A stretch of 64,000 bases of DNA, taken from the NCBI GenBank assembly GCA_022316685.1, contig JAKJHU010001521.1:1-64000 (forward strand). The letters run 5' to 3'. The stretch comes from Progne subis subis (taxonomy: Eukaryota; Chordata; Aves; Passeriformes; Hirundinidae). Position 1 is the stretch's first letter. The number at the start of each line of letters is the position of its first letter. Positions 18,386 through 40,634 of the stretch are shown piece after piece. The position numbers and the translations under genes were made by a program. Under the pieces are notes generated by a model. That model was not told the DNA's origin, searched no databases, and worked only from the letters and a program-made list of their open reading frames with translations.

Positions 18386-18435
18386 CGCCATTGCATTTCC
18401 AATCAACCGGGTTTCCATGGCAATTCCATGACAGC

Positions 18436-19086
18436 TGTCCTAGGGTAACTTTATGATGCTTGTATCCACAGTCTTCTCTTCTGTTTGTGTTGTATAATGA
18501 GTTTTGTGCCTTTAAGACTGGTTCTAAGAGCAAGGAGAAGCGCGGAGTTTGTTTTGAGAAAACTGCCTGACTCCTCCACATTCTTCTCTGCACCTGGTGC
18601 TCAGCGGAGGCTTGGAGAGACTGCAGGACAGAGATCTTTTTGCTTTTAGTTAGTTTCAGCTACCTAGGGCAGAGAAGTTCCCTGGTTTCTTTTTCCCTTT
18701 TTCTTGGAACTGTTTAAACCTGCTCTGGACTGAAAAAAACCCAGGGAGCACTGGGGGCTTGCACCTGCGGCCCACCGGGGCCTGGACCTCGGCATTTTCC
18801 AGCAGCGCCGGAGGGACTGGGACTGAGGAGAGACTGAGAGAGAGCCGAGCTCCACCCACGGCAAGGACTTTCTCAATTTGCCATCTCACTTCAGAACGAG
18901 AGGTTTTATTGTTTCATGTTATTCATTCTTTATACTTGTATGCACTTTGTTAAGTAAAATTGTTTTTTCCCCTTTTCTCTAAGGAAGATCTTTACTGGAC
19001 TGGTTGAAAGGAGGGGCCATTTGGGTTTTCTCCCTGGAGGGATCCCATTCAGGGGTTTTCTCCCAAATTTGCCTTAAACCAGGACA
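18436..19086 (+). mobile_element. Left LTR, largely unedited
   Basis: 651 bases, with a promoter-like gtataatgag near 18491 and normal G content. It serves as the reference for the edited right copy. Confidence 0.65.
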
Positions 19087-20604
19087 ATACCTTGTTATTG
19101 ATGCTCAAGAGAGTGGAAAAAGCTTCTCTTGATTATTAATTGCCTTTTATTTGTCCTTTATATAAATATAAAACAGTCCATAGCCATGTTACTCCTTAAA
19201 TTCCTAATGTCTCAGAATAAATTCCTTTCTCTGTTTCTATTTCCCATGCTTTTTTAATGTTGTAATACTTTTCTAGTCCCTACATTTATTTTCTTATCCA
19301 AAAATAACTCCAATGTTGTCCCTAAGACATCACTTTTTATACTGAAAGTACACAAATTAAAATAATTATCTTTATTAAGCTCAGTAATTATAATTTACAA
19401 AAAGTTTATAAAATACTAGAGTTTGTGCCAAGTATGTTTACTTTATAGTTTCTTCATCCTACCCTAGTCCTAGTTCCAACAACATGGTTTAAAAATTTAT
19501 CAATATTCACACCCAGTTTGTTAGAAGAAAAGTAGGGGTTGGGGCTTTTCAATCTCTCCTTTCCTTTTTCTCTTTTAAATCAGTTACATCAATTTTAAAA
19601 AATGCTCAGTGTCCCCTAAATACTAAAGATACCACCTATAAGTAAGCACAAAACCAAAAAATAAATCTAACCATAAAAAGTATTTCTCAAGTTATCCATA
19701 ACTGTAAAACATGTACTACAATCAAGCAATCCAAACAAATAAATCCCCTATAATAGAGCAAGCTATAACCCAAATACAAATATAGAAATACCTAGCAAAT
19801 TAATTATATTACTCTACCCCAAACACACCAAAGTAAGCACTACATACTCACAATAATAAAAGCCACCACAAACTAACTAAAACCTACCCTGCACCTCATG
19901 CTACAACCCATAACACCATTCTAAACCTTAAAAACAAAGTTCTTTAAAGACATAGTACCCATAAAAAATTAATCAAACAATAGAACTCAATTTCAAAAAC
20001 AACCTCATCAACAACTAACTAAGAACATAGCGTTAAGTAAGTGTAGCATATCTCCTACCATACACCAACTTAAAAGAAAGTAAAAAAATACAATAGACTG
20101 TTAAAAACCACCCTAAAAACACTAAGTAGGAAATCTTAGAAAAATTAAAAACAGCATCTAACAAAAAACCCTAGTTAGTTAACACCCAAAGTTCCACCAG
20201 CAGAGCAAGCCCTACCCAGTCTAAGCCCCACATACAGGAGATAAAGTCCCAGTAGAACATGTAAGAAGTTTGTTAAGAAAGACACTTTAAATCAATTCTA
20301 CTTCAACTACAGACAAACCCATCCGTGGGATTGTCTTCATTCAAGGACCAAGTTACACATAGTAAGTAATGCAAAAAGATAAAACCACACAATGTGCACT
20401 TCAAGGAGATCTGATTGTTGAGTAAGAACCATGTGTAATGATCACTGTGTACTGAATGTCACTGCCATTGTCTGTATATAGCTGTATATTGTATATTGTA
20501 TATTGTTTTTATATAGATACATGTATGTGTAGTGTATGTGTGTGCAGAGCTAGAATATATATATTAGTTTTAGTAAGTCAACAATATGGGGATAAAGAGT
20601 AAAA
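19087..20604 (+). other. G-depleted internal region of the LTR element
   Basis: From about 19600 the plus strand becomes strikingly poor in G while C remains common, as if most G had become A. Nothing resembling a primer-binding site follows the left LTR. A run of tgtatat and gtatgtg near 20470-20550 is a short AT-rich simple repeat. No gene can be read. Confidence 0.6.
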
Positions 20605-21288
20605 TATCCTAAAGTAAGCTTATGAATGCTTGTATCCCCAATTGTCTGTTCTGTTCATGCTGTATATAAAGTTCTGTGATTTAAAACTAGTTCTAAGAAC
20701 AAAGAAAAATGCAAAGTTTATTTTAAAAAAACTACCTAACTCCTACACACTCTTCTCCATGTAAGGTGTTAAACAAAAACTTAAAAAAACCTGCAAAACA
20801 AAAATATTTCTGTTTTTAGTTAGTTTCAACTAACTAAAATGGGAAAATTCACTAAACTATTCTTTTCCCTTTTTTTCTTAAAACTACTATAAACCTACAC
20901 TAAACGTAAAAAAACAAATAATAAACAAACAACAAAACCAAAAACAAAAAAACCACTAAAAGCTTACACCTGCAGCCCACTGGTGCCTGGACCTTGGCAT
21001 TTTCCAACAGCACCAGAAACACTAAAACTAATAAAGAACTTAAAAAAAAAGCCGAGCTGCATCCATAGCAAGACCTTTGTCAATTTACCATCTCACTCCA
21101 GAACAAAAAGTTTTATGGTATCATAGTATTCATTTTATATACTTATATGCACATTTATTTGTTAAATAAAATAGATTTTTCCACTTCTCTCTGGGAAAGT
21201 TCTTTACCAGACTGGCTTGGGGGGAAGGGCCATTTAAATTTGCTCCCCATTCAGAAGTTTTATCCCAAATTTACCCCAAACCAAAACA
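20605..21288 (+). mobile_element. Right LTR, heavily G-to-A changed
   Basis: Aligning 20690-20749 with 18521-18580 without gaps, 11 of 16 G are A, with only two other changes. Later stretches are equally altered, while patches such as 20970-21000 and 21210-21240 keep their G. C residues are mostly unchanged, so the effect is on one strand. Confidence 0.7.
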
Positions 21289-21800
21289 ACAGGTGACCCA
21301 GGTGTGGTGTCCCAGGGAGGGCTGCCATGGAAGCAGTGCCCAGCCCTGCCCCTTTCTGTCTGGCTGAGCTGGCCTTTGGCCCTGGCAGTGGCGTTTGCTG
21401 CTGGTTCCGCGGCGCCTGAGCAGCCAGCACGGCACAGGGCAGGTGGCCGTGGCACAAGCCCCCAGCAAGGGATCCCCTCTGGCTCTGGGCACTGACACCA
21501 GCCCTGAGCAAGGGGCCCAGGGCAGGTTTCCATGGCACACAACCATCACAGCGGCTCCAGGCCTTGGCTGCCACGGCACCAAACCAAGGAACGGGTCCCT
21601 GTGGCCGACTGCCGTGGCACCTGAGGGCATCAGCGAGTGTCAGTGCAATTGTAGCCTGGAACAGCCCCGGCACCGCTTTGTCCTCAGGGGTGCCCTGGCA
21701 GCCCAGGACAGCAACAGCTCTGCGTGCAAGTGGCCACGGAACCTGGCTGCAGAAATGGGTCCTTGGGCTGCTTTCCAAGGAACCTTGAAGGGATGAGGGA
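21289..21800 (+). repeat. Degenerate minisatellite with tgcca(t/c)gg(c/a)a cores
   Basis: Cores such as ctgccatggaagc, ttccatggcac, ctgccacggcacc and ctgccgtggcacc recur at uneven 40-70-base spacing, reminiscent of the X-box minisatellite at 16585 but more diverged. 21801-22559 beyond it has no recognised gene. Confidence 0.45.
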
Positions 21801-26702: not shown

Positions 26703-27632
26703 ATGTCCAACAGCAGCTCCATCAGCCACTTCCTCCTGCTGGCATTGGCAGACACGCGGCAGCTGCAGCTCCTGCACTTCTGCCGCTTCCTGGGCATCTC
26801 CCTGGCTGCCCTCCTGGCCAACGGCCTCATCATCAGCGCCGTAGCCTGCGGCCACCTCCTGCACACGCCCATGTTCTTCTTCCTGCTCAACCTGGCCCTC
26901 ACCGACCTGGGCTCCATCCTCACCACTGTCCCCAAAGCCATGCACAATTCCCTCTGGGACACCAGGACCATCTCCTACACAGGATGTGCTGCCCAAGTCT
27001 TTCTGATTTTCCTCTTCCTTGCATCAGAGCTTGCCCTCCTGACCATCATGTGCTACGACCGCTACGTGTCCATCTGCAAACCCCTGCACTACGAGACCCT
27101 CCTGGGCAGCAGAGCTTGTGCCCACATGGCAGCAGCTGCCTGGGCCAGTGCCTTTCTCTATTCACTGCTGCACACAGCCAATACATTTTCCCTGCCCCTG
27201 TGCCATGGCAATGCCCTGGGCAAGTTCTGTGAAATCGCACACATCCTCAAACTCTCCTGTTCCAAATCCCATCTCAGGGAACTTGGGCTTCTTGCAGTAA
27301 GTGCCAGTTTAGCATTTGGTTGTTTTGTTTTCATTGTTTTCTCCTATGTGCAAATCTTCAGGACTGTGCTGAGGATCCCCTCTGAGCAGGGACGGCACAA
27401 AGCCTTTTCCACCTGCCTCCCTCACCTGGCTGTGCTCTCTCTGTTCCTCAGCACTTCCATATTTGCTCACCTGAAGCCCTCCTCCATCTCCTCCCCATCC
27501 CTGGATCTGGCCCTGTCAGTTCTGTACTCAGTGGTGCCTCCAGCCCTGAACCCCCTCATCTACAGCCTGGGGAACCAGGAGCTCAAGGCTGCAGTGTGGA
27601 GACTGATGACTGGATGGTTTCAGGAACATTAA
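26703..27632 (+). CDS. Olfactory receptor family 14-like, intact (309 aa)
   Basis: Odorant receptor GPCR, seven helices, expected in olfactory cilia and coupled to Golf by family knowledge; the ligand is unknown. The start is the ATG after the acceptor, giving an NSS glycosylation site at residue 3. Motifs: TM1 about 22-47, LHTPMFFF at 53-60, Cys95 at the start of TM3, CYDRYVSICKPLHY from 117, loop cysteines 167, 176 and 186, KAFSTCLPHL at 233-242, [11 protein letters not shown] at 279-289. The length of 309 is normal. Two oddities: one residue is missing beside loop Cys176 (GKFCEI against GQFFCEI in the other copies), and the usual Arg after NPLIYSL is Gly290. It is the only OR in the window open throughout. 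Very similar to the avian clade annotated as OR14; the exact orthologue cannot be told. Confidence 0.92.
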   Translation: MSNSSSISHFLLLALADTRQLQLLHFCRFLGISLAALLANGLIISAVACGHLLHTPMFFFLLNLALTDLGSILTTVPKAMHNSLWDTRTISYTGCAAQVFLIFLFLASELALLTIMCYDRYVSICKPLHYETLLGSRACAHMAAAAWASAFLYSLLHTANTFSLPLCHGNALGKFCEIAHILKLSCSKSHLRELGLLAVSASLAFGCFVFIVFSYVQIFRTVLRIPSEQGRHKAFSTCLPHLAVLSLFLSTSIFAHLKPSSISSPSLDLALSVLYSVVPPALNPLIYSLGNQELKAAVWRLMTGWFQEH

Positions 27633-29535: not shown

Positions 29536-29687
29536 GGGTTGGATGAGGGAAATTGTGGGGAGGGGTGGGGACAAAGTCTGATTTATCATCAGTCATGAAG
29601 GGTCTTGATTTTCATATCAATTTAGACTGCTTTTAATGTGCTGAGGATCAATATCAATCGGACATTGTAGATATCAATCTATAAATA

Positions 29688-30531
29688 TGTACTAAATGAA
29701 AATAATTCATGGTAATTGTAATCATATCAATATTTTGAAAATATATATTTTAGAATATACTTGTAATAAAGTAGTAAAGGAAAAAGTAGATGTGATTAGC
29801 GTTACAAAGCAGATGGGCCCCTTGGCAGATGCTACATGAGAAAAATAAGATACAGGATGCAGTTTGAGATAAGCAAGAGTTTCAAAGCTGGATTGGCCAA
29901 AGCTGGGACTACTCCAAGGTAGGGAGATGGGCCCTTTACAGATGTGATGGGATACAGGATGTCTTAAGATAGAACTGGCCTTGAGATGGACAGAGTTGGG
30001 ACTATTCCAAGGTGGGGAGTTTGGGTGGTGGTTTGATCCATGAAATAATCACTTTTTGGAACAAAATGCTTAGTTATGTATATCACAAAACTCAGAGTGC
30101 ACGCACAACCAGTAAGGTTATTCATAGGATGAGTGGAAGATGATGAGCCTTCACCTGAAGAAGACCACCAAAAAGCCAAGAAGACCCCCTAACAATGAGT
30201 GGAGCATGTGCTAAGGAGTACAGTGACGTAGATTTCACAAATTAAAAATAGGAGAAGATTTGCAAGAAATATTAATGAATTTGTATTAGCATACAGTGTA
30301 TAAATCTAAGTTGGAATACTTTGTTTTGTACATGAGGTAGGGTGAGAACCCCCCCTCCATACCCAGTCGTTTTTGCTTATGCTTTATCCGAACATTACTT
30401 ATCTTTAATTAATCACTGCCAATTTTTTTGTATATGCTTGATTATAAAATGCTACTTAAAAAAAATTGCATTGCTGCTAAATTCAACTTTGTTGCTTCTT
30501 AAATTAGACATATAGAGCTTCATTTATAACA
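29688..30531 (+). mobile_element. 5' LTR of the large ERV
   Basis: Starts TGTACTAAATG and ends ataaca. A run of a's near 30458 stands where the 3' LTR has AATAAA. A frame-free region otherwise. Confidence 0.82.
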
Positions 30532-30534
30532 ATT

Positions 30535-30552
30535 TGGTGCTGAAACCTGGGA
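30535..30552 (+). promoter_or_regulatory. Primer-binding site, tRNA-Phe type
   Basis: TGGTGCTGAAACCTGGGA lies three bases after the 5' LTR. It differs at two C-to-T positions from the sequence complementary to the 3' end of tRNA-Phe. Other common retroviral primers (Pro, Lys, Trp, Leu) fit worse. Confidence 0.75.
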
Positions 30553-31007
30553 ACTCCAGCCTGGGGAAGGACGGCTAGTCTCGGGAAGGAGCTCCCCACC
30601 AGCTCTTTAAGGTGGTCCCGAGGTTAGACTTCCTTGGAGAAGGAGTTCCAATTACGATTATGCATCAGCAAAGGAAGCCAGCAATAGGAGGCACACACCA
30701 ACACTGCCATTGGAGTGCCAGCTAAGGTAAAGGCGCCTGTAAAATGTCTTGTGCACAAGAACTGCGTGGGAAAGTGGACTGTGTAAGTACCACAGGGGTT
30801 GGGCAGGCAGGCGGCTGTGTGTTTGTGTGTGTTGTAGAATATCTAAAATGGGGGCTGGTAGCCCAGACCCCTGAAGCAAGTGTGAACCTCCCAGTACCTG
30901 CGTTTTCAGCTCTCTGTGAGGAGACCAGCCGGGAAAGGAGGGAAGTGAAAGAGAGAACGAGTGCTCTGGGGCAGCCTGCCTATCACTTCGGGACCCCTCC
31001 CCAAGAT

Positions 31008-31334
31008 TGTGAAATCATACGGGGAGGGCTTCAGGTGATAGGTCACCTGGGGGGAATTCCTTTGGCCCTTGATTTTAGTGGTCCGAGGCTTGGGGGTGGG
31101 CACACCTTGTTACCTCCTGAATCCCCTGATTTGTTGTCTTGTTGTATCCTCCCTGGAGCCCTCCCCCAGTTAAAAGGTGGCGGAGAGAGATTCAAGCTCT
31201 CTGCTCTCGCTCTCTGGCCTCTCTGGCCTGAGGTTTGGACCAGCTGAGGACTTCCCGCAGCTCGGCCTGAATAAACATCTTTTAACCTGCTAAGCTGAGA
31301 GCCATCCTTTTCTGCTGCCGTCACTGTCACAACA
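31008..31334 (+). mobile_element. Possible second LTR inside the ERV leader
   Basis: Begins TGTGAAATC, has gttaaaaggtgg near 31169 as a TATA-like site, aataaac near 31270 and ends gtcacaaca. This layout resembles a solo LTR of another family nested in the leader. No target duplication was found, and it might instead be part of the leader itself. Confidence 0.4.
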
Positions 31335-31899
31335 CTATTTAGTCCAGCTGCTGCTGAGAAGCCGAGCCAGCAGGTAAAGATAACCTGCGTGCCTATCTGA
31401 ACTGGGAACAACTTGTAGCTGTGCAGATCTGAGCCAGCCAGAGGCAGGTGTCCGCCCGGTGCGAAATTCCCTGGGAGGGACTGGCAGGGAGGGTCCCCGG
31501 CCCAAGAACCCAGGGGAAGTCCTCGAGGAGAAGGGAGCGATCTGATTGCTGGGCAAGGTGAATAAGGAGGGGAGCAATTGAGTCAAGTTCAATTTCTTTG
31601 AGAAGTAAATACTTGGTAACTTTAGTACGCGACTAAGAGGGATTGCAAGGGGAAGTGGCTAGAAGGATATAGTCAGGGAAGACAGATTGGGAGAAAGATT
31701 GGAATTAGGCATGAGGCAAACAGTTGGCAAAAGACAAGATAGTGCAACAGAATAATAAGTGAGAGAATTGAAACATGAAGTGAGAGAGGGAGACCAAGAT
31801 TCTCCTGGAACCAGAGGTTTTCTTGATTTGTTGCCACCAAAAACGGAGTCCAAGCAAGAGTAACTCCTTAGACCTAGGAGCTGCGAATTATGAAGGAAA

Positions 31900-33440
31900 T
31901 TCACAAGAGCCTGGTATACCTGGGAACTGTGAGGGGGTTCTCAGAAGGGGAACATCCCTCAGGACAGTCCACTGGGGATAATGTTATGATACTGGGATGC
32001 ATGGGAATCCCAAAGAGGAAAAAGCAAGCAGAAGATGATTAACTATTGCATGTTTGAATGGACAAAGGAAATGATCTGGAAAGATAACTTATATTGGCCA
32101 AAGTCCAGATTGTTTGAAGATTGGATTTGCCAGGCTTTGAATTTTAATGTGAATTCCAAAGAACCTTTTAATCAGGAAGAAAGCAAATACACTGCTCTGT
32201 GGCTTCCCAGGGGAAAGGATGAATTTGTCACTCGGAGGCAGGGAAGAAAAGGTCATCTGTTGTATCCTTTACAAACTTGAGGGCAAGCAGCCAAAAAGGA
32301 CAGACACGAGCCCTAGGATCCATTAGATCACCTCCCAGCCCCTTATAGGCAACCTAATCAGCCCGTTCAACCCCAAGCCCCTGAGGGTCCTCCTGTAAAT
32401 GCAAACGCACCCCCTATTCAGGAGGAGCCAGTAGCACATGGAACTAGAGGGGAGGGGATGGGGAGAAGTGATGATGGGGATGGGGAAGCAAAAATGGAAG
32501 ATGAACTGTACCTGCTTAGAAAAGTTCCAATGGCAAATCCAGAACAGAGACCTATTGGTGATGTGAGTGTTCCCTGAACACAGGGGATGTTAGGGAGTTT
32601 AAGAAGGAGATGGGCAGGCTGCTAGAGGATCCTCTTGGAGTGGCAGAGAGATTAGATCAGTTCTTGGGGCTGAATACATACACCTGGGTGGAACTGCAGT
32701 CTATCTTAGGAATCTTGTTTACCATGGAAGAAAGAGAAATGATTAGACATTCAGGAAAGAGGGTTTGGGATACAGAATGTCAGGGGCCAGACCAGGGGGA
32801 TCAGAAATGGCCTATGCAAGATCCAGGCTGGAATAATCAGAATGAAAGACACAGGCAGAACATGAGTGAACTCCAGTGGATGATAATCTGAGGAATCTGG
32901 GAAGCAGTTCCCAAGGGCAGAATATAAGGAAAGCTCTAAGTGAGCACCAAGGGAAGGATGAACCCCTGGCAGACTTGGTCAGAAAGGCTAAGAAAAGCCT
33001 TGCAGTTATATTCAGGTGTAGACCCCGATACTGCAGCAGGACAGGGTCCTTTTGAAAACACAATTTGTAGTTTAGTTCTGGGGGCACATCAGGAGAAAGC
33101 TGGAAAAAGTAGAAAATTGGCAGGATAGGGGGCTTCAGGAATTGTTAAGAGAAGCACAGAAAGTGTATGTGAGAAGAGGTGAGGAGAGGCAAAAGACAAA
33201 AACACAGATTTTAATGGCAGCAGTCAAGGAAACACAGACAACCATGAATACAGAGAAGTGCTCAGGAAAGAACAAACAACAAAAAAGGCAGGTCCCACCT
33301 CTGGGGATACGAGACCCACGTGTTTTTCCTGTCACCAGAAAGGACCCTTAGAAACTTCTTGTCCTGCCTCCAGAAGCACAGGACCCACTTGTTTTATTGC
33401 CACAAAAAGGGACATCTACAAAATTCTGTAGAAAGAGGCA
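31900..33440 (+). pseudogene. gag: ERV gag remnants
   Basis: Pieces in several frames. 32035-32280 has a matrix-like pattern (DWICQALNFNVNSK). 32300-32400 is proline-rich. 32610-32880 resembles the gamma capsid (LDQFLG, then TWVELQSILGILFT and EEREMIR). 32930-33060 fits the region after the major homology motif. Near 33385-33430 a nucleocapsid zinc knuckle is legible as YCHKKGH with its outer cysteines damaged. Stops and shifts separate all pieces. Confidence 0.65.
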
Positions 33441-35960
33441 GCAAGATGAGAAAATGTTTCAAGAAGACTATGGGGGGTCAGGAGCTCTATTTAATGAGGA
33501 CTGAACACCTAGAAGAGCCCTTGATAAAACTGAAAATAAGTCCTCAAAAGGAAGAAATCACATTTTTGGTGGACACAGAAGCTACTAGGTCCACAGTAAG
33601 AAAACTACCACAGGGATGTGAACGTGTCCCAGTAATTGCGGTTAAACGAGAAGTTTTTCAGGTTCCTGTAATTAAAAATGTGCAGATTGAATCGGATAAA
33701 AAATTTAGATGGAATGATTTGGTATTAATACCAGAGGCTGATAATAATTTATTAGGAAGGAACTGAATAATAGCCTTGGGGATTAAAATAACGCCCTTTG
33801 AAGGAAAACTTAAAATCTATTCTTTAACTGAAGAAGATCATTTTGAGATTAGTGACACTGTGTGGTATACTGGTGAAGTAGGAAAATTAAACATTCAGCC
33901 CATTAGCGTTGAAATACAGAACGCAGAAATCCCCATTGGAGTAAAACAATATCCGATATCACTGGAAGGTCAGAAGGGACTGAAACCGGTAGTTGAGAAT
34001 TCAGTACATCAGGGGGTGTTGGAGTCCTGTGTGTCACCACATCATACCCCCATCCTGCCGGTAAAGAAGCCTGATGGTAGCTACCGACTAGTCCAGGATC
34101 TCAGAGCGGCAAATCAAAGAACCATTACCCGCTTTCCAGGAGTAGCTAAGCCAGATACCTCCTAATTACACTTGGTACAGTGTCGTGGATTTAAAGGATG
34201 CCTTTTGAACTTGCCCTCTGGATGAGGGCAGTAGGGATTGCCTTTGAGTAGGAGGACACAGATACAGGTAGGAGAGAACAATTCAGGTGAACGGTGCTAC
34301 CGCAAGGTTTTACAGAGGCACCCAATCTTTTTTGGGAGGGCGTTAGAAAATCTTTGGAAATCCTTTGAGTTACCCAAAGGAATTAAGTTGCGAGAGTATG
34401 TAGATGATTTGTTAGTAGCAAGAGAAAGTGAAGAGGAAACTAGACAGGGTACTATTAACCTTCTAAATTTTCTGGGAGAAAACGGACTGAAGATATCAAA
34501 GTCAAAATTGCAGTTTGTAGAGTCAGAAGTGTGGTATTTAGGTCATTGGATTAGTAAGCAAAAGAAAAAGCTAGACCCTGAAAGGTCAGGAATATTGAAC
34601 ATGGAACCCCCAAAGTCTAAAAGAGAAATAAAGCAGGTTTTGAGTCTTTGGGGTTATTGTAGGCAAGAGATAGAAGGGTTTAGTAGAAAAGTAAAATTTC
34701 TATATGGGAAATTAACTACCAATTGCTTGAAATGGACTGAAAGGGATCAGGAAAATTTGGAGCAAGTTAAAGAAGCCCTACTGCAAGCTCCAGTACTGAG
34801 CCTTCCCAATTTAGACAAGCCTTTTCAATTATTTCTTAATACAGTTGATCAGTCGGCTTATGAAGTATTGACTCAAGGGTGGGCAGGAAGCCGAACGCCA
34901 GTAGGATATTATTCCAAATTATTGGATCCAGTTAGTAAGAGCTGGCCAACATGCCTGCAAGCTCTGGTAGCCACTGCTGTGTTCGTAGAAGAAGCACAAA
35001 AAGTAACCTTTGGGGCACCACTGGAAGTGTACACCCCCATAATATCAGGGGAATCCTTGCAAAAAAAGGCTGAAAAATGGTTATCTGATAGCAGAATATT
35101 AAAATATGAGGTTATCTTGATAGCCTCCCGTGAATTTGAGCTGAGTGACAAATATACAAAGCCCCGCTCAGTTCCTTTACGGGGACCCAGGGGAAGAATT
35201 AATACATGATTAATACATGGAGGTCATAGAGTTACAAACAAAAATATGCCCAGATTTAAGAGAACAAGAATTAAAAACAGGGGGAAAATTATTTATAGAT
35301 GTATCATCCCGAGAGGTAGACGGAAGAAGGAAATCTGGGTATGCCATAATGAGTGGAGAAAAACTGGAAGTAAAAGAATCAGGTCCCCTTAGCCCGTCCT
35401 GGTCAGCACAAGCCTGTGAACTCCATACATTATTCTGTGCATTGCTGTTATTAAAGGATCGAGAAGGGACCATATACACCGACTCAAAATATGCCTTTGG
35501 GGTAGTGCATACATTTAGAAAAATTTGGAAAGAAAGGGGACTTAAAAACACTCAAAGAAAAGGAATAGTACACCAAGGATTGATAATTCAAATTCGTACG
35601 GCTTTGAAGAGCCCAAAAAAGATAGCAGTCGTTCATGTGAAAGGCCACCAGAGGGGGAGAGACATTAAAACAAGAAGAAACAATTTAGCTGATGATGAAG
35701 CTAAGAAAGCTGCCCAGAGGGAAAACAGCAATGTAATTATGACTTTTCAGGAAGCAGGAGCACAAAATCAAACACCATACTTTTCTTTAGCAGAAAGAGA
35801 AGCCATGAAAACCTAGGAGCAGCTCTCAGAGGGGACAATGGATTCTCCCTGATGAAGCCACAGTTCGAACGGCAGAAAAAGGCTAGACTCATGCTTCAAG
35901 GGTAAAAGGACCTATACCCAATAAAGACTGGAAAATTATTGTGACACCAGGAGACCTGAA
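33440..35960 (+). pseudogene. pol: ERV pol remnants (protease, RT, RNase H, integrase end)
   Basis: Protease: LVDTEA at 33566, where the usual Gly of the DTG active site is Glu. RT: VKKPDGSYRLVQDLR near 34060-34105, DLKDAF followed by a stop near 34190-34207, and the catalytic YVDD at 34397-34408. RNase H: 35217-35760, with FIDVSSRE, ACELHTLF and YTDSKYAF carrying the Asp-Glu-Asp set, and HVKGHQ near its end. After 35816 only a short stretch resembling the C-terminal end of gamma integrase is seen (HASRVKG, then WKIIVTPGDLKVK, 35900-35960). The integrase zinc domain and DDE core were not found, so a deletion is likely. Confidence 0.75.
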
Positions 35961-36051
35961 AGTAAAATGAAAAAAAAGACTTAAAATTGATTAAACCTTT
36001 TTATTGAGGTCCAAAATACAGTTTAAAGTATAACTGTAATTAATCCACCAC

Positions 36052-37380
36052 ATGGCTGAAGAGAGCATTTGGTGCCCAGAGGCTATAGCTGATATGGAAA
36101 ATCGTTTTCGGCTGTGGATTTCACATAATGCTGCAACACATTTGGTGTGCCACCCACACATTGAAAGAATAACCCAGCCCCAGGATATTCCAGATATCCT
36201 TAGTACAGAAAGGTCAGAAGCTGCCATCCCGCAGAGAGAAGTTTCCATGTTTCAGCAAGGTGGCTGCAAACACGGTCATCAGTGTGAGCGGTGTAAAGCA
36301 GTGACCATGAAGTGGCTGAGACAAAGACATTGGCACAGAACAACTGTACCTTGGGACCAAAGAGATGTAGCTTTTATGATTAATTGTATACAATGTTTTA
36401 GTAGAGTAGAGTGAGACTTTAGAATGCACAATTGGGTTTTAGCACAGATCAACATTGATAATTATATAATAGAAGATCAAGTACAAAGAGCATTAATTTA
36501 TTTAGCATATCACATGGAATGACTAGTGGCTTTGAGAACACTGCAAGAACAACAAAGGATAATAAAGGTAAGATGTGGATATAGTAGGATACCTAGAAAC
36601 AACAGAAAAAGATAAATTATCTTGCTTAACCTGTTCAGGTTAACAAACTCCTTTGATAGTTAACAATTAAAGGTTTGTGTTTTGTAATTGCAACTAACTT
36701 TAATTTACTAGAAAAATTAGGCATTCTGGATTGGCTGTTGACGGCAACTCCACTGAGTTTGGAGTCAGAAGAATGCCAGTGGGAAGGGATCAGACACTTC
36801 CTTGATCAATGGGAACAGCCTGAACAGATTGAAAATCTTTTAAGAGGCCCTCAGCAACTAACACTAACAGATTTCATTGAGGAACTACAATTCCAGAAAA
36901 AGAGACTGGGAACACCTGTTACTAAAAGAGGTCCAAGGACAAGTAACACACTGGGAGGGTACTAAGCATGGCTTAGAGTGTCGCCCAGTGGGTTTGTGTT
37001 ATTTGTGCGCTTTGCCTTAATTCAGTGGTGGAGAGTAAAAAGAGCAGAAGAAGAAAGAGACAATTGATTGTTTACTTGCTTAGATTGCAGTGTGCTGAAC
37101 AGTTCACTTTAAAAAGTGATTTTTCAGTGATTTGTTTGCAACACTCTTCGAAGATATGAAGATGGAACCTTTTATGCAGCAGTTTGATTAATAGAAAATT
37201 TAGACCAATGAGTTTTACTATATTAGCTTTTGAGCAGGTGAGAGAGGAAAGGATTCATAATATTATAGACCAGTGTATCATAATTAACAGTTGCTGTGGA
37301 GACGGAATTTGTGTGCCACGCTATAGACACATTTCTTACGTGAACTGGCATTTCGAATGTGCCTATTGGTGGAGATGAAG
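36052..37380 (+). other. Unexplained pol-env segment with short frames
   Basis: Simple gammaretroviruses have no gene here. Legible frames: 36052-36414, 120 codons with a Cys/His cluster (CKHGHQCERC) and a later CIQC; 36675-36965, 96 codons, acidic and leucine-rich; about 36973-37160, a frame with a CVICALC cluster followed by a basic KKSRRRKRQ stretch, opened by an ATG two codons before a stop; and 37184-37378, with a cysteine cluster. None matches integrase by spacing of His and Cys. They could be accessory genes or exons, captured sequence, or chance frames in decayed DNA. Confidence 0.4.
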
Positions 37381-37598
37381 ACTTAATAATTATCCCCGAC
37401 ATCAGAGCAAAAAGCAACCAACAAACAGGTTGTTAACTGAAGTAGTGAAAAAGCAAATCTTATTGTAGTTGGCACATCTCCGGAGCTTTGGTGGTTTAGA
37501 CTAAAAGAAGAAGTAGCTGACTAACGCAGAGAGAGAGAGAGAGGGAGAGGGCAGTGCTGTGAGAACTGTGAGTAATCTGTGCCATCCTTGAAACAAAC

Positions 37599-39632
37599 AT
37601 GAGGCCAAGGGTACCAGTGAGACCAAAGGCACCAGTGACTAGATCCCAGGATATAAACTTTCCTCCCAAGAATCTGACATCTTGGCCCTTGGCTGCAACC
37701 CAAAGGGCCTTGAGGACAGTAGAAAGTTGAAATTCCTGAGGATTATTTTCACTGTGTTTGTTGTGATGCCCTTGGCAACTGGCCAAAACTATGGAGCCAC
37801 TCTGGACACAGTCCATGAGAGAAGGGAACGAGCAATGCAGGAACAAACAATAATAAACAAGCAGCACAAGAGCAGGCAATGAGAGAACAATCTATGCAAA
37901 ACAAAGTCCCAATAATGCTGATCCCTGTAATAAATGCCATCACTCCATGTGGGTTGAAGACAAGATGGAATTTTGTTCATGGCACATCCACATGTTAGTG
38001 CTGCCTGCTACGATCAGCAGAATTTTTATAGAGTTGTGTTAAAAATAGAAAAAATGGATTGGGTAGGGAAAAATTTAGGATTTAATGGACCAGCTCCTTA
38101 TCCTTATAGTGGTCAAATCTGTCCCTCAATATGAAAACTTCTTTTTTGTTTTGAGAAAGATGAGAATGGGAATGATCCAAGTATAGGTATAGGAGGTATA
38201 GCACTAAGGAAAAAAAGAAGAAAACAAAAAGAAACAAAAGAAATACATAAAAGGCCATAGGGAAAGAATTAAAGGAACTGGATAAGCTGTATGAACAATT
38301 AAAACAGCAGATAGTAGCACTGGGATTTGACAACCTCAACTAAGAACCTTTTGTAGATTTGATGCAAGAAATTGCTACAGAATTAGGAGTATCCAAATGC
38401 TGGATCTGTGGGGGACTTAGAATGGCTGAAAGATGGCTGTGGGAAGGTGAGAGTCTAGCTACAGAACCATTTTTAAAATGGAATCATACTCAAATTTCCA
38501 AGACATTAGAATGACCCGAAGGATGGATTTTGAGTCATCAAGTAATTGGAACAGTCTGTATAACTTGAGAAGGAAGGAAATATAATGAAGTAGTAGGATA
38601 TACTCCTTGTATATCTACTTTGGTAGTTAATTCGGATAATAAAACTAAGACCTGACGACCAAAAAACTTTTACTGGGTATTGAGGAAAAACCAACGGAAG
38701 TGAATTGTGAGTGGAATAATCAAACTGATTTGTGCTGGTATATACTGAATTACCTCGAAAAGTGGGAGGGAACCTGTACCTTAGGAGTTATATCGACTCT
38801 CCTTCTTCATCATCCCAAGGTCTAGGAGCAATATGCTAGGAACACCACTTTATGAGACTCTAGAAAGGAATAAAAGAGATTTAAAACCCAACTTCCCTAA
38901 GGCAGGGGGAAGCCAGAAATGGGGGAGAAATGAATGGCCTGCAGAAAGAATCATAGCGTATTTATGAACCCAGCACCTTGGGCTGAAGGATGGATCTTGG
39001 GATATAGGAACCCCAATTTATCTATTGAATCTGTTGATAAGACTCCAAGCAGTAGTGGAGGTTTGTATCAAACCATACTTCTGATGCCCTAAAGTTATTG
39101 GCCAAGCAGCCATTCACAAATGTGAGCACTTGTATATCAAACCAGAATTGTCCTAGATTATCTGTTGGCTGAAGAAGGGGGAGTTTGAGGAAGATTTAAG
39201 GAATCTGAGTGCTGTGATGGAGAGAGATGATCATGGGGAAGCCATCACAAACACTTGCTGAAGAAATTAAAAGGGTGGCACATGTACCTGTTCAAAAGGG
39301 ATTCATTCTAAAAACGGATTGGTGGGATAACCTCTTTGGAGGAGCCTGGTGGAAGAATTGGGATTTATGCTGTTATGTTCTGGATTAGGATTGTTATTCT
39401 TACCATGCATGATTCCATGTCTTACTAGACTAATCCACCCAGTGATACAAGGAATGCAAATGACAGCAATGCCCATTGATCCAGAATTGGCAGCAAAAGG
39501 GAAACCAAATTCTTTGATGATATTAAAAGCTAGACCTACTCACACTCAAAAGAAAGAACCTGGAGAGATGTTGACTGAATATAAAGAGACTACTGTAGCA
39601 CAAGAGATGTCAAGCAAATTTGAGAAGGAATG
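37599..39632 (+). pseudogene. env: ERV env remnants
   Basis: A leader starts near 37599, with a hydrophobic signal-like stretch at 37738-37775 in a shifted frame. The surface subunit shows KCWICGG at about 38394-38414, the CXXC motif typical of gamma-type Env. The transmembrane subunit keeps LDYLLAEEGG (about 39149-39178), part of the immunosuppressive-type region, followed by a stop and ECC. A WWDNLFGGAWW-like stretch precedes a membrane span near 39365-39430 and a cytoplasmic tail that ends at 39632. Broken in many places. Confidence 0.7.
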
Positions 39633-39768
39633 AGAAAAAGCTTGATGCAGCACGGGAGATGTTAGAAAATTTAGAGGCTGAAATGAGAGAGCGTGGAAAC
39701 CTGGATTATTGGGAATATAGAAGAAATCGAGATTCAGTTTTAATTAAAAAGCATGAATCAATATGATT

Positions 39769-39788
39769 AAAAAGAGAAATGGGGGAAA
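39769..39788 (+). promoter_or_regulatory. Polypurine tract
   Basis: An A/G run with one T (aaaaagagaaatgggggaaa) ends directly before the TG of the 3' LTR, where plus-strand DNA synthesis would be primed. Confidence 0.75.
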
Positions 39789-39789
39789 T

Positions 39790-40634
39790 TGTAATAAATG
39801 AAAATTATTCATGCTAATTGTAACTATATTAGATATTTAGAAATATATATTTTTAGAAAATATTTGTTATAAAGTAGTAAAGGAAAAAGTAGATGTGATT
39901 AGTGTTACAAAGCAGATGGGCCCCTTGGCAGATGCTACATGAGAAAAATAAGATACAGGATGCAGTCTGAGATAACGCAAGAGTTTCAAAGCTGGATTGG
40001 CCAAAGCTGGACTACTCCAAGGTCCAGGAGATGGGGCCCTTTGCAGATGTTATGGGATACAGGATGTCTTAAGATAGAACTGGCCTTGAGATGGACAAAG
40101 CTGGGACTATTCCAAGGTAAGAGGTTTGGGTGATGGTTTGATCCATGAAATAATTACTTTTTGGAACATAATGCTTAGTTATGTATAACACAAAACTCAG
40201 AGCGCACGCACACCCAGTAAGGTTATTCCTAGGACAGCAGAGGAAGATGGATGAGCCTTCACCTGAAGAAGACCACCAAAAAGCCAAGAAGACCGCCTAC
40301 AACAACTGGAGCAGGAGCTAGTGTAGTATAGTGACGGTAGATTTTACAAATTAAAATAGGTGAGATTCACGGGAAATATTAATGAATATGTATTAGCATA
40401 CAGTATATAAATTTATGTTGGATTACTGTCTGTTAGTACGTGAGGTAGGGTGAGAACCCCCCTCCATACCCTGGTCGGTTTTGCTTATGCTTTATCTGAA
40501 CCTTAATTATCTTTAATTAATGACTGCCGAATTTTTGTATATGCTTGATTATAAAATATTACTTAAATAAAATTGCATGCTGCTAAATTCACTTCATTGC
40601 TTATTAAATTAGACATTAGAGCTTTATTTAAAAC
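39790..40634 (+). mobile_element. 3' LTR of the large ERV
   Basis: Starts TGTAATAAATG; AATAAA at about 40565. The last bases (aaaac) fall short of a clean CA and run into a pyrimidine microsatellite, so the exact end is uncertain. Confidence 0.82.

What the first reader, a model, noticed from the sequence alone, without database searches (positions are those of the whole stretch)
18436..21288. LTR element with dense one-strand G-to-A change, APOBEC-like
Seen: over 60 gap-free aligned bases (18521-18580 against 20690-20749) 11 of 16 G in the left LTR are A in the right LTR, with one C-to-T and one C-to-A as the only other changes. C is otherwise kept, so the process acted on one strand. Known: cytidine deaminases edit minus-strand retroviral cDNA and leave G-to-A on the plus strand, and such editing has been reported in bird LTR elements. 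Caution: the next base after edited G is mixed (GA 5, GC 3, GG 2, GT 1 in this sample), so no single enzyme signature is shown.
Basis: partly seen in the sequence, partly recalled or inferred. Interest (0 to 1): 0.85.

Follow-up and report, generated by a model that had tools for sequence, protein, structure and literature searches.

The report
Bird retrovirus edited in one LTR
An old virus-like element in what is probably a bird genome was heavily rewritten (G to A) by an APOBEC-type defence enzyme while being copied into DNA; one end was spared, which suggests when the enzyme acted, and the element was later multiplied together with neighbouring smell-receptor genes.

Summary
Confirmed at the stated coordinates. 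The two LTRs (18436-19086, 20605-21288) differ by 92 G>A among 156 aligned G, against 15 C>T among 142 C. Family LTRs elsewhere in the genome set the direction: at 149 columns where 18 of them are at least 80% G, the right LTR alone is A at 82, the left alone at 2, both at 1. The interior is edited too; in all 250 of 427 G against 33 of 355 C. Editing prefers CC and TC on the minus strand and avoids AID's WRC; a separately edited second copy shows the same order. The 36 other loci first fetched are duplicates of this one insertion within an olfactory-receptor amplicon, which also has 471 empty sites. Variants arising after duplication show no G>A excess. Best reading: an APOBEC1-like deaminase edited minus-strand cDNA, and the unedited 5' LTR places this after plus-strand strong-stop synthesis. 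3'-LTR-specific editing was reported in mouse proviruses in 2025, with at most 16 sites; this is far more extreme. Later conversion of the 5' LTR by a solo LTR remains the main rival. Species unnamed.

The parts
18431..18435 (.). target site duplication, left copy (ACAGC)
   Evidence: ACAGC before the LTR in all 30 copies compared; 5-bp duplications flank several other family LTRs, read by eye; 471 sites match flank+ACAGS+flank
18436..19086 (+). 5' LTR, unedited
   Evidence: TGTCCTAG...CCAGGACA; of 149 family-G columns 2 private A and 1 shared with the right LTR; 82-90% identical to 19 of 20 fetched family LTRs, the twentieth (L084) matching in part only
19087..20604 (+). interior of the element, edited and truncated; its 3' part corresponds to RNase H/integrase-coding sequence of a relative
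   Evidence: 19103-19315 against L091: G>A 18/36, C>T 3/33; 19627-20595 against L090: G>A 140/240, C>T 15/195; the L090 reading frame hits RNase_H and rve. 19316-19626 had no aligned relative
19098..19106 (+). remnant of primer binding site (inferred), partly deleted
   Evidence: window TTGATGCTC against relative TTGGTGCCCAATATGGGGCTC, read by eye
20588..20604 (+). polypurine-tract-like stretch before the 3' LTR (inferred from position and sequence)
   Evidence: GGGGATAAAGAGTAAAA directly upstream of the LTR
20605..21288 (+). 3' LTR, heavily edited; A-rich insertion around 20900-20955
   Evidence: G>A 92/156, C>T 15/142 against the left LTR; right-only A at 82 of 149 family-G columns
21289..21293 (.). 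target site duplication, right copy (ACAGG, 4 of 5 match)
   Evidence: 29 of 30 copies; one copy lacks a base at the junction
26703..27632 (+). olfactory receptor gene of the duplicated host region
   Evidence: 7tm_4 E 2.2e-45

Best explanation
A defective, internally truncated LTR retroelement integrated once into an olfactory-receptor/zinc-finger gene region. While its cDNA was being made, a single-strand DNA cytosine deaminase of APOBEC type deaminated C in the minus strand, giving G>A on the plus strand over the interior and the 3' LTR. The 5' LTR escaped because it was templated by plus-strand strong-stop DNA copied before deamination and was made as duplex, whereas the minus strand of the 3' LTR was displaced and became single-stranded again until plus-strand synthesis finished. 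The editor was most likely an APOBEC1-like enzyme rather than AID; the genome carries two APOBEC1-like exons near an AID-like gene. Afterwards the locus was duplicated many times with its host region. Shown: one-strand change, its direction and extent, fixation in the duplicated copies with no later excess, context, presence of the deaminase exons. Inferred: the enzyme, and the timing within reverse transcription.
For: Substitution counts and direction. Same excess in the interior against unedited relatives L090 and L091. 76 of 92 G>A sites are fixed on both sides in at least 90% of 29 other copies, against 5 of 15 C>T. Rare variants arising after duplication show no G>A excess in flanks, LTRs or interior. 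Nearby ERV control symmetrical. Empty sites show that the LTR-interior-LTR unit came in as one insertion. Context order GG>GA>GC>GT at 427 sites, and the same order in a second edited copy L089 (0.71, 0.66, 0.51, 0.34; 351 sites); WRC sites edited 41/110, other sites 209/317. Edited sites of R and L086 are not significantly associated (32 shared, 53 and 15 private, 44 neither; odds 1.8, p = 0.15), as two separate editing events would give. APOBEC-family exons in the genome. Published precedent for 3'-LTR-specific editing, with this mechanism proposed, in mouse (PMC12548423).
Against: The 5' LTR could have been overwritten later by a solo LTR of the family. On 57 comparable polymorphic non-G/A columns L and R agree at 67%, no better than with several other family members, so pairing rests on the target duplication and the empty sites, not on shared subfamily variants. 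Editing is low just upstream of the polypurine-like tract (35/102 at 20212-20661), where the HIV model predicts a peak, and lower towards the end of U5; neither is explained. Predicted single-strand folding did not separate edited from kept sites. The 5' LTR of the second edited element was not reached, so 3'-LTR specificity is shown for one insertion only.
Confidence: 0.72

Rival explanations
1. Both LTRs were edited before integration, and the 5' LTR was later replaced by gene conversion from an unedited solo LTR of the same family, before the locus was duplicated.
For: The family is large (2732 matches of a 35-base LTR pattern, 0 in the control), so donors abound. L and R share no more subfamily variants than L shares with several other family LTRs; L is closest there to L081, 47/62.
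Against: Conversion would have to cover the full 651 bp and end at or near the LTR border, leaving 1 shared A at 149 columns; editing is present soon after the border (2/11 in the first 75 bp, then 9/14). Displacement of the 3' LTR minus strand explains the same border in one step.
Confidence: 0.2
2. AID, not an APOBEC1-like enzyme, edited the cDNA.
For: Four exon matches on C1112 taken to be an AID-like gene from their arrangement; their sequence was not fetched.
Against: WRC sites, the AID preference (recalled), are edited less (41/110) than other sites (209/317), and SYC, its cold spot (recalled), is edited well (96/132); the second edited copy has the same context order.
Confidence: 0.07
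3. Strand-biased mutation after integration (transcription, R-loops, local replication bias) made the A's.
For: The change lies on one strand only.
Against: Rare variants after duplication show no G>A excess in any of five regions; the neighbouring ERV is symmetrical; the change stops at the LTR end and spares the 5' LTR.
Confidence: 0.02
4. The left and right LTRs belong to two different insertions or subfamilies, one naturally A-rich.
For: Non-G>A divergence between them is 76 of 639 sites, about that between unrelated family members.
Against: Empty sites with the same flanks and target sequence show one insertion bounded by these two LTRs; family LTRs are G at 88 of the 92 sites.
Confidence: 0.03

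Closest known systems
3'-LTR-specific G>A hypermutation of endogenous MMTV (Mtv17, 21, 61, 62), PMC12548423 (J Virol 2025)
   Same: G>A unique to the 3' LTR; the authors propose editing of the displaced, again single-stranded 3' LTR minus strand
   Different: There 13, 16, 2 and 9 LTR differences on top of multiple edits shared by both LTRs, made by mouse APOBEC3; here 82 right-only against 1 shared, APOBEC1-like candidates, an old element multiplied in a gene amplicon
Ultra-edited LTR elements of zebra finch (Knisbacher and Levanon 2016; not held, known here through passages of PMC12548423, PMC6523648, PMC6497032)
   Same: Dense G>A in songbird LTR elements; Table 3 of PMC12548423 lists up to 71.5 G>A per kb for zebra finch
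   Different: No LTR-by-LTR asymmetry is described in the passages I saw; the element here has 250 G>A over roughly 1.8 kb aligned
APOBEC3 editing of HIV-1 minus-strand cDNA with two gradients (PMC4488724, passages)
   Same: Minus-strand cDNA editing that varies along the genome
   Different: Here the stretch just 5' of the polypurine-like tract is a trough, not a peak
Lizard APOBEC1 as DNA mutator and retroelement inhibitor (PMC3880073, passages)
   Same: Non-mammalian APOBEC1 as candidate editor; the paper notes an A1 homologue in zebra finch
   Different: Lizard editing was found in L1 elements, not in L2, CR1 or LTR elements

Membership tests
APOBEC-type cDNA hyperediting | Large excess of G>A over C>T on the plus strand | tested here: met
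   250/427 against 33/355
APOBEC-type cDNA hyperediting | Change confined to the element and made before spread of the locus | tested here: met
   76 of 92 sites fixed in the copies compared; no G>A excess later; GC skew near zero beyond 21289
APOBEC-type cDNA hyperediting | Dinucleotide target preference | tested here: met
   GR 179/246 against GY 71/181, p = 4e-12; same order in a second edited copy
APOBEC-type cDNA hyperediting | Enzyme acts on single-stranded DNA | tested here: inconclusive
   Predicted pairing does not separate edited from kept G; LTR asymmetry fits
AID editing | Preference for WRC (motif recalled) | tested here: not met
   41/110 WRC against 209/317 other
APOBEC1 as the editor | Gene present with zinc and catalytic motifs | tested here: met
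   Two exons on C1112 with HAE and PCxxC, read by eye; best solved relative APOBEC-1, E 2.6e-18 and 3.8e-32. Best Pfam hits are SNAD4 and APOBEC4_like, with APOBEC1 fifth and second, so the name is provisional; whole genes were not assembled
APOBEC1 as the editor | Enzyme deaminates retroelement cDNA with this context | not testable with these tools
   needs an enzyme assay
LTR retroelement with integrase | TG...CA LTRs, fixed-length target duplication, RNase H and integrase | tested here: met
   the duplication here matches 4 of 5, and the right LTR begins TA (edited TG); the pol domains were found in a relative (L090), the window has the aligned remnant
ERVL class | pol phylogeny | not tested
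   the 5-bp duplication is compatible (recalled); no tree was built
3'-LTR-specific hypermutation | G>A in the 3' LTR absent from the 5' LTR of the same insertion | tested here: met
   82 right-only, 2 left-only, 1 shared of 149; one insertion shown by empty sites; later conversion not excluded

The most novel reading that the evidence does not exclude
In this lineage the deaminase acted only late in reverse transcription, after plus-strand strong-stop synthesis and second strand transfer, with practically no early editing (1 shared against 82 3'-LTR-only sites). LTR asymmetry is then a clock for when an APOBEC1-like defence reaches the cDNA, different from mouse APOBEC3, whose edited proviruses carry multiple sites in both LTRs.
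Probability: 0.45. Interest if true: 0.72.

Novelty: new variant of a known kind. Interest (0 to 1): 0.55.

Why it matters
Hyperedited LTR elements in songbirds are known, but which enzyme does it, and when, are open in animals without APOBEC3 (absence in birds is recalled). One insertion with a clean 5' LTR and a heavily edited 3' LTR gives an internal control for direction, context and timing. It also shows that LTR-LTR divergence can be badly wrong as an age (168 differences here, of which 92 are G>A), and that editing surveys can count one insertion dozens of times when it lies in a duplicated gene region.

Tried and rejected
Secondary structure as the reason for kept G: no significant difference on either strand at three span limits. 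Shared subfamily variants as proof that L and R are a pair: uninformative. Using the best genome matches as independent relatives: rejected, because all 36 other loci cut from the first two searches (L002-L008, L010-L038) align to the host flank of the window as well; the 43 further rows of those two lists were not cut and not checked. Counting edited copies with a 51-base pattern: not completed, nor was a left-junction count. The listings showed no other report of 3'-LTR-specific editing besides PMC12548423, judged from titles and starts of abstracts only; of PMC8775094 and PMC5388530 I saw passages. Searches looked for the olfactory-receptor amplicon and gave listings only, not followed.

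Rows dropped: L084 (partial alignment) from the family alignment; L086 (itself edited) from the column counts; columns with fewer than 12 family bases or under 80% agreement; G sites that became C or T from the context counts.

Full report
What is there. The window holds an LTR element at 18436-21288, flanked by ACAGC and ACAGG. Both LTRs align end to end (651 and 684 bp). The left one is ordinary in composition; the right one and most of the interior are poor in G and rich in A. The interior is short (1518 bp): 19103-19315 aligns to the 5' interior of a relative (L091) and 19627-20595 to the 3' interior of another (L090), whose reading frame carries RNase H and integrase domains; 19316-19626 had no aligned relative. 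So this looks like a truncated copy of a larger element. In the 35-base listing about a dozen same-strand pairs of family LTRs lie 5.5-6.3 kb apart, as full-length copies would.

Is it more than chance? Yes. G>A 92 of 156 against C>T 15 of 142 between the LTRs, p = 3e-19. The control ERV in the same window is symmetrical, 15 against 13. Outside CpG the contrast stays (85/145 against 11/131).

Copies in the genome. The first two searches returned 40 and 41 matches, with 8 and 30 loci cut. Two of these loci are the window itself; the other 36 all align to the host flank of the window as well. They are duplicates of one locus, between a zinc-finger cluster (by eye from the frames) and olfactory receptor genes. 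Joining the flanks across one target copy finds 471 empty sites (237 forward, 234 reverse, up to 3 mismatches allowed, 0 in the reversed control; every place in the capped list had 0 mismatches). The element therefore came in as one unit, bounded by these two LTRs, into one member of a multiplied region. Assembly redundancy was not examined, so 471 is not a gene count.

One early event. In 29 other full copies (of the 30 loci L039-L068, cut from the best matches; two of them, L061 and L062, share only a short piece of the right flank), 76 of 92 G>A sites are fixed on both sides in at least 90% of copies, against 5 of 15 C>T. Rare variants within the duplicated copies, which arose after duplication, show G>A per G and C>T per C of 0.071/0.090, 0.090/0.105, 0.066/0.077, 0.015/0.096 and 0.069/0.074 in left flank, left LTR, interior, right LTR and right flank. 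There is no continuing G>A excess; the low rate in the right LTR (1 variant at 67 G) may mean that the susceptible G are gone. In the 11 copies displayed the right LTR comes in two main versions, differing by a 24-bp gap and the A-rich insertion, with mostly the same edited sites.

Direction and extent. A pattern found 391 family LTRs (0 in control). I fetched 20, picked by hand mostly from large contigs; none aligned to the window's host flanks, and 19 were aligned as a family. Family state is G at 88 of 92 sites where left is G and right is A. Against 18 relatives (L086 left out), 149 columns are at least 80% G: right-only A 82, left-only 2, both 1, neither 55, the rest another base. Of 121 C columns: right-only T 7, left-only 3, both 0, neither 103. 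The interior is edited as much as the 3' LTR: 140/240 against L090 and 18/36 against L091, C>T 15/195 and 3/33. Along the element in 75-bp bins: 2/11 at the start of the interior, then 9/14 and 7/10; 76-82% at 19612-19986; 5/17, 10/19, 10/26, 2/11, 3/14, 5/15 from 20212 to 20661; up to 10/10 at 20887-20961; 8/21 at 21187-21261. The trough around the polypurine-like tract is unexplained. Edited and kept G are clustered along the LTR (57 runs, 72.9 expected, p = 0.004).

Enzyme signature. By the base after the edited G: G 103/133, A 76/113, C 41/81, T 30/100; GR against GY p = 4e-12. On the minus strand this is CC >= TC > GC > AC. In the small 5' interior sample (36 G) the preference is not visible. 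WRC, AID's motif (recalled), is edited less than the rest. The second edited copy (L089, contig C594; 201/351 G>A against 28/256 C>T) has the same order. Its 3' LTR with adjoining interior (L086 against L085) has 71/191 against 10/145, and its edited sites are not significantly associated with those of R. The genome holds, by PF08210, seven matches: one on C2491 that is APOBEC2 by Pfam, four exon matches on C1112 that I take for an AID-like gene (not fetched), and two single exons 10 and 22 kb away that resemble APOBEC1 best among solved structures and carry HAE and PCxxC. Nothing here shows that they act on cDNA.

Timing. In reverse transcription both LTRs come from one minus-strand copy; edits made before plus-strand strong-stop synthesis appear in both. 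Edits made when the minus strand of the 3' LTR is displaced appear in the 3' LTR alone. PMC12548423 (passages found by search, and section 7 in full) describes this in mouse and says such differences had not been reported for other retroviruses. There the two LTRs share multiple edits and differ at 2 to 16 sites. Here 82 are 3'-only and 1 shared. If the 5' LTR was not converted later, nearly all editing of the LTR came after strong-stop synthesis.

Limits. The listing (2732 matches; 100 listed in contig order, 96 printed) showed 9 of 13 G edited in 3 strings, all from this duplicated element, 4 of 13 (with 2 C>T) in one other, and at most 2 in the rest; it is not a random sample. Of the LTR pairs visible there, two have G>A in the downstream member only (2 and 1 sites), one has a CpG G>A in the upstream member only, and one a CpG C>T in the downstream member only: too few to test 3' specificity.

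Noticed in passing
window 18431-21293 and genome contigs listed: The host region between zinc-finger and olfactory receptor genes has 471 matches of the empty insertion site in the assembly, besides 30 non-identical loci with the insertion: a very large amplicon. Haplotype redundancy was not checked.
   Followed up: partly
29683-40634: A second ERV, about 11 kb, with LTRs about 89% identical and an RNase H reading frame at 35217-35816; no G>A bias between its LTRs.
   Followed up: partly
20880-20960 and L040-L068: The 3' LTR exists in two main versions among the duplicated copies shown: one with a 24-bp gap and a longer A-rich insertion.
   Followed up: partly
L086, L089 (contig C594): A separately and heavily edited copy of the same family with a longer interior. 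L086 and L088 (contig C6) have the same 8 bases after the LTR, so they may lie in another duplicated locus.
   Followed up: partly
genome contig C1112 about 7.713-7.736 Mb (L092, L093): Two APOBEC1-like exons near an AID-like gene; the two differ clearly from each other.
   Followed up: partly
genome contig C2, 55700 and 58910; 28410986 and 28417007; contig C1, 1997908 and 2003871: Two pairs of family LTRs whose downstream member has 2 and 1 G>A in 35 bases while the upstream member has none; a third pair has one CpG G>A in the upstream member only.
   Followed up: no
20212-20661: Trough of editing around the polypurine-like tract (35/102 G), opposite to the HIV gradient.
   Followed up: no
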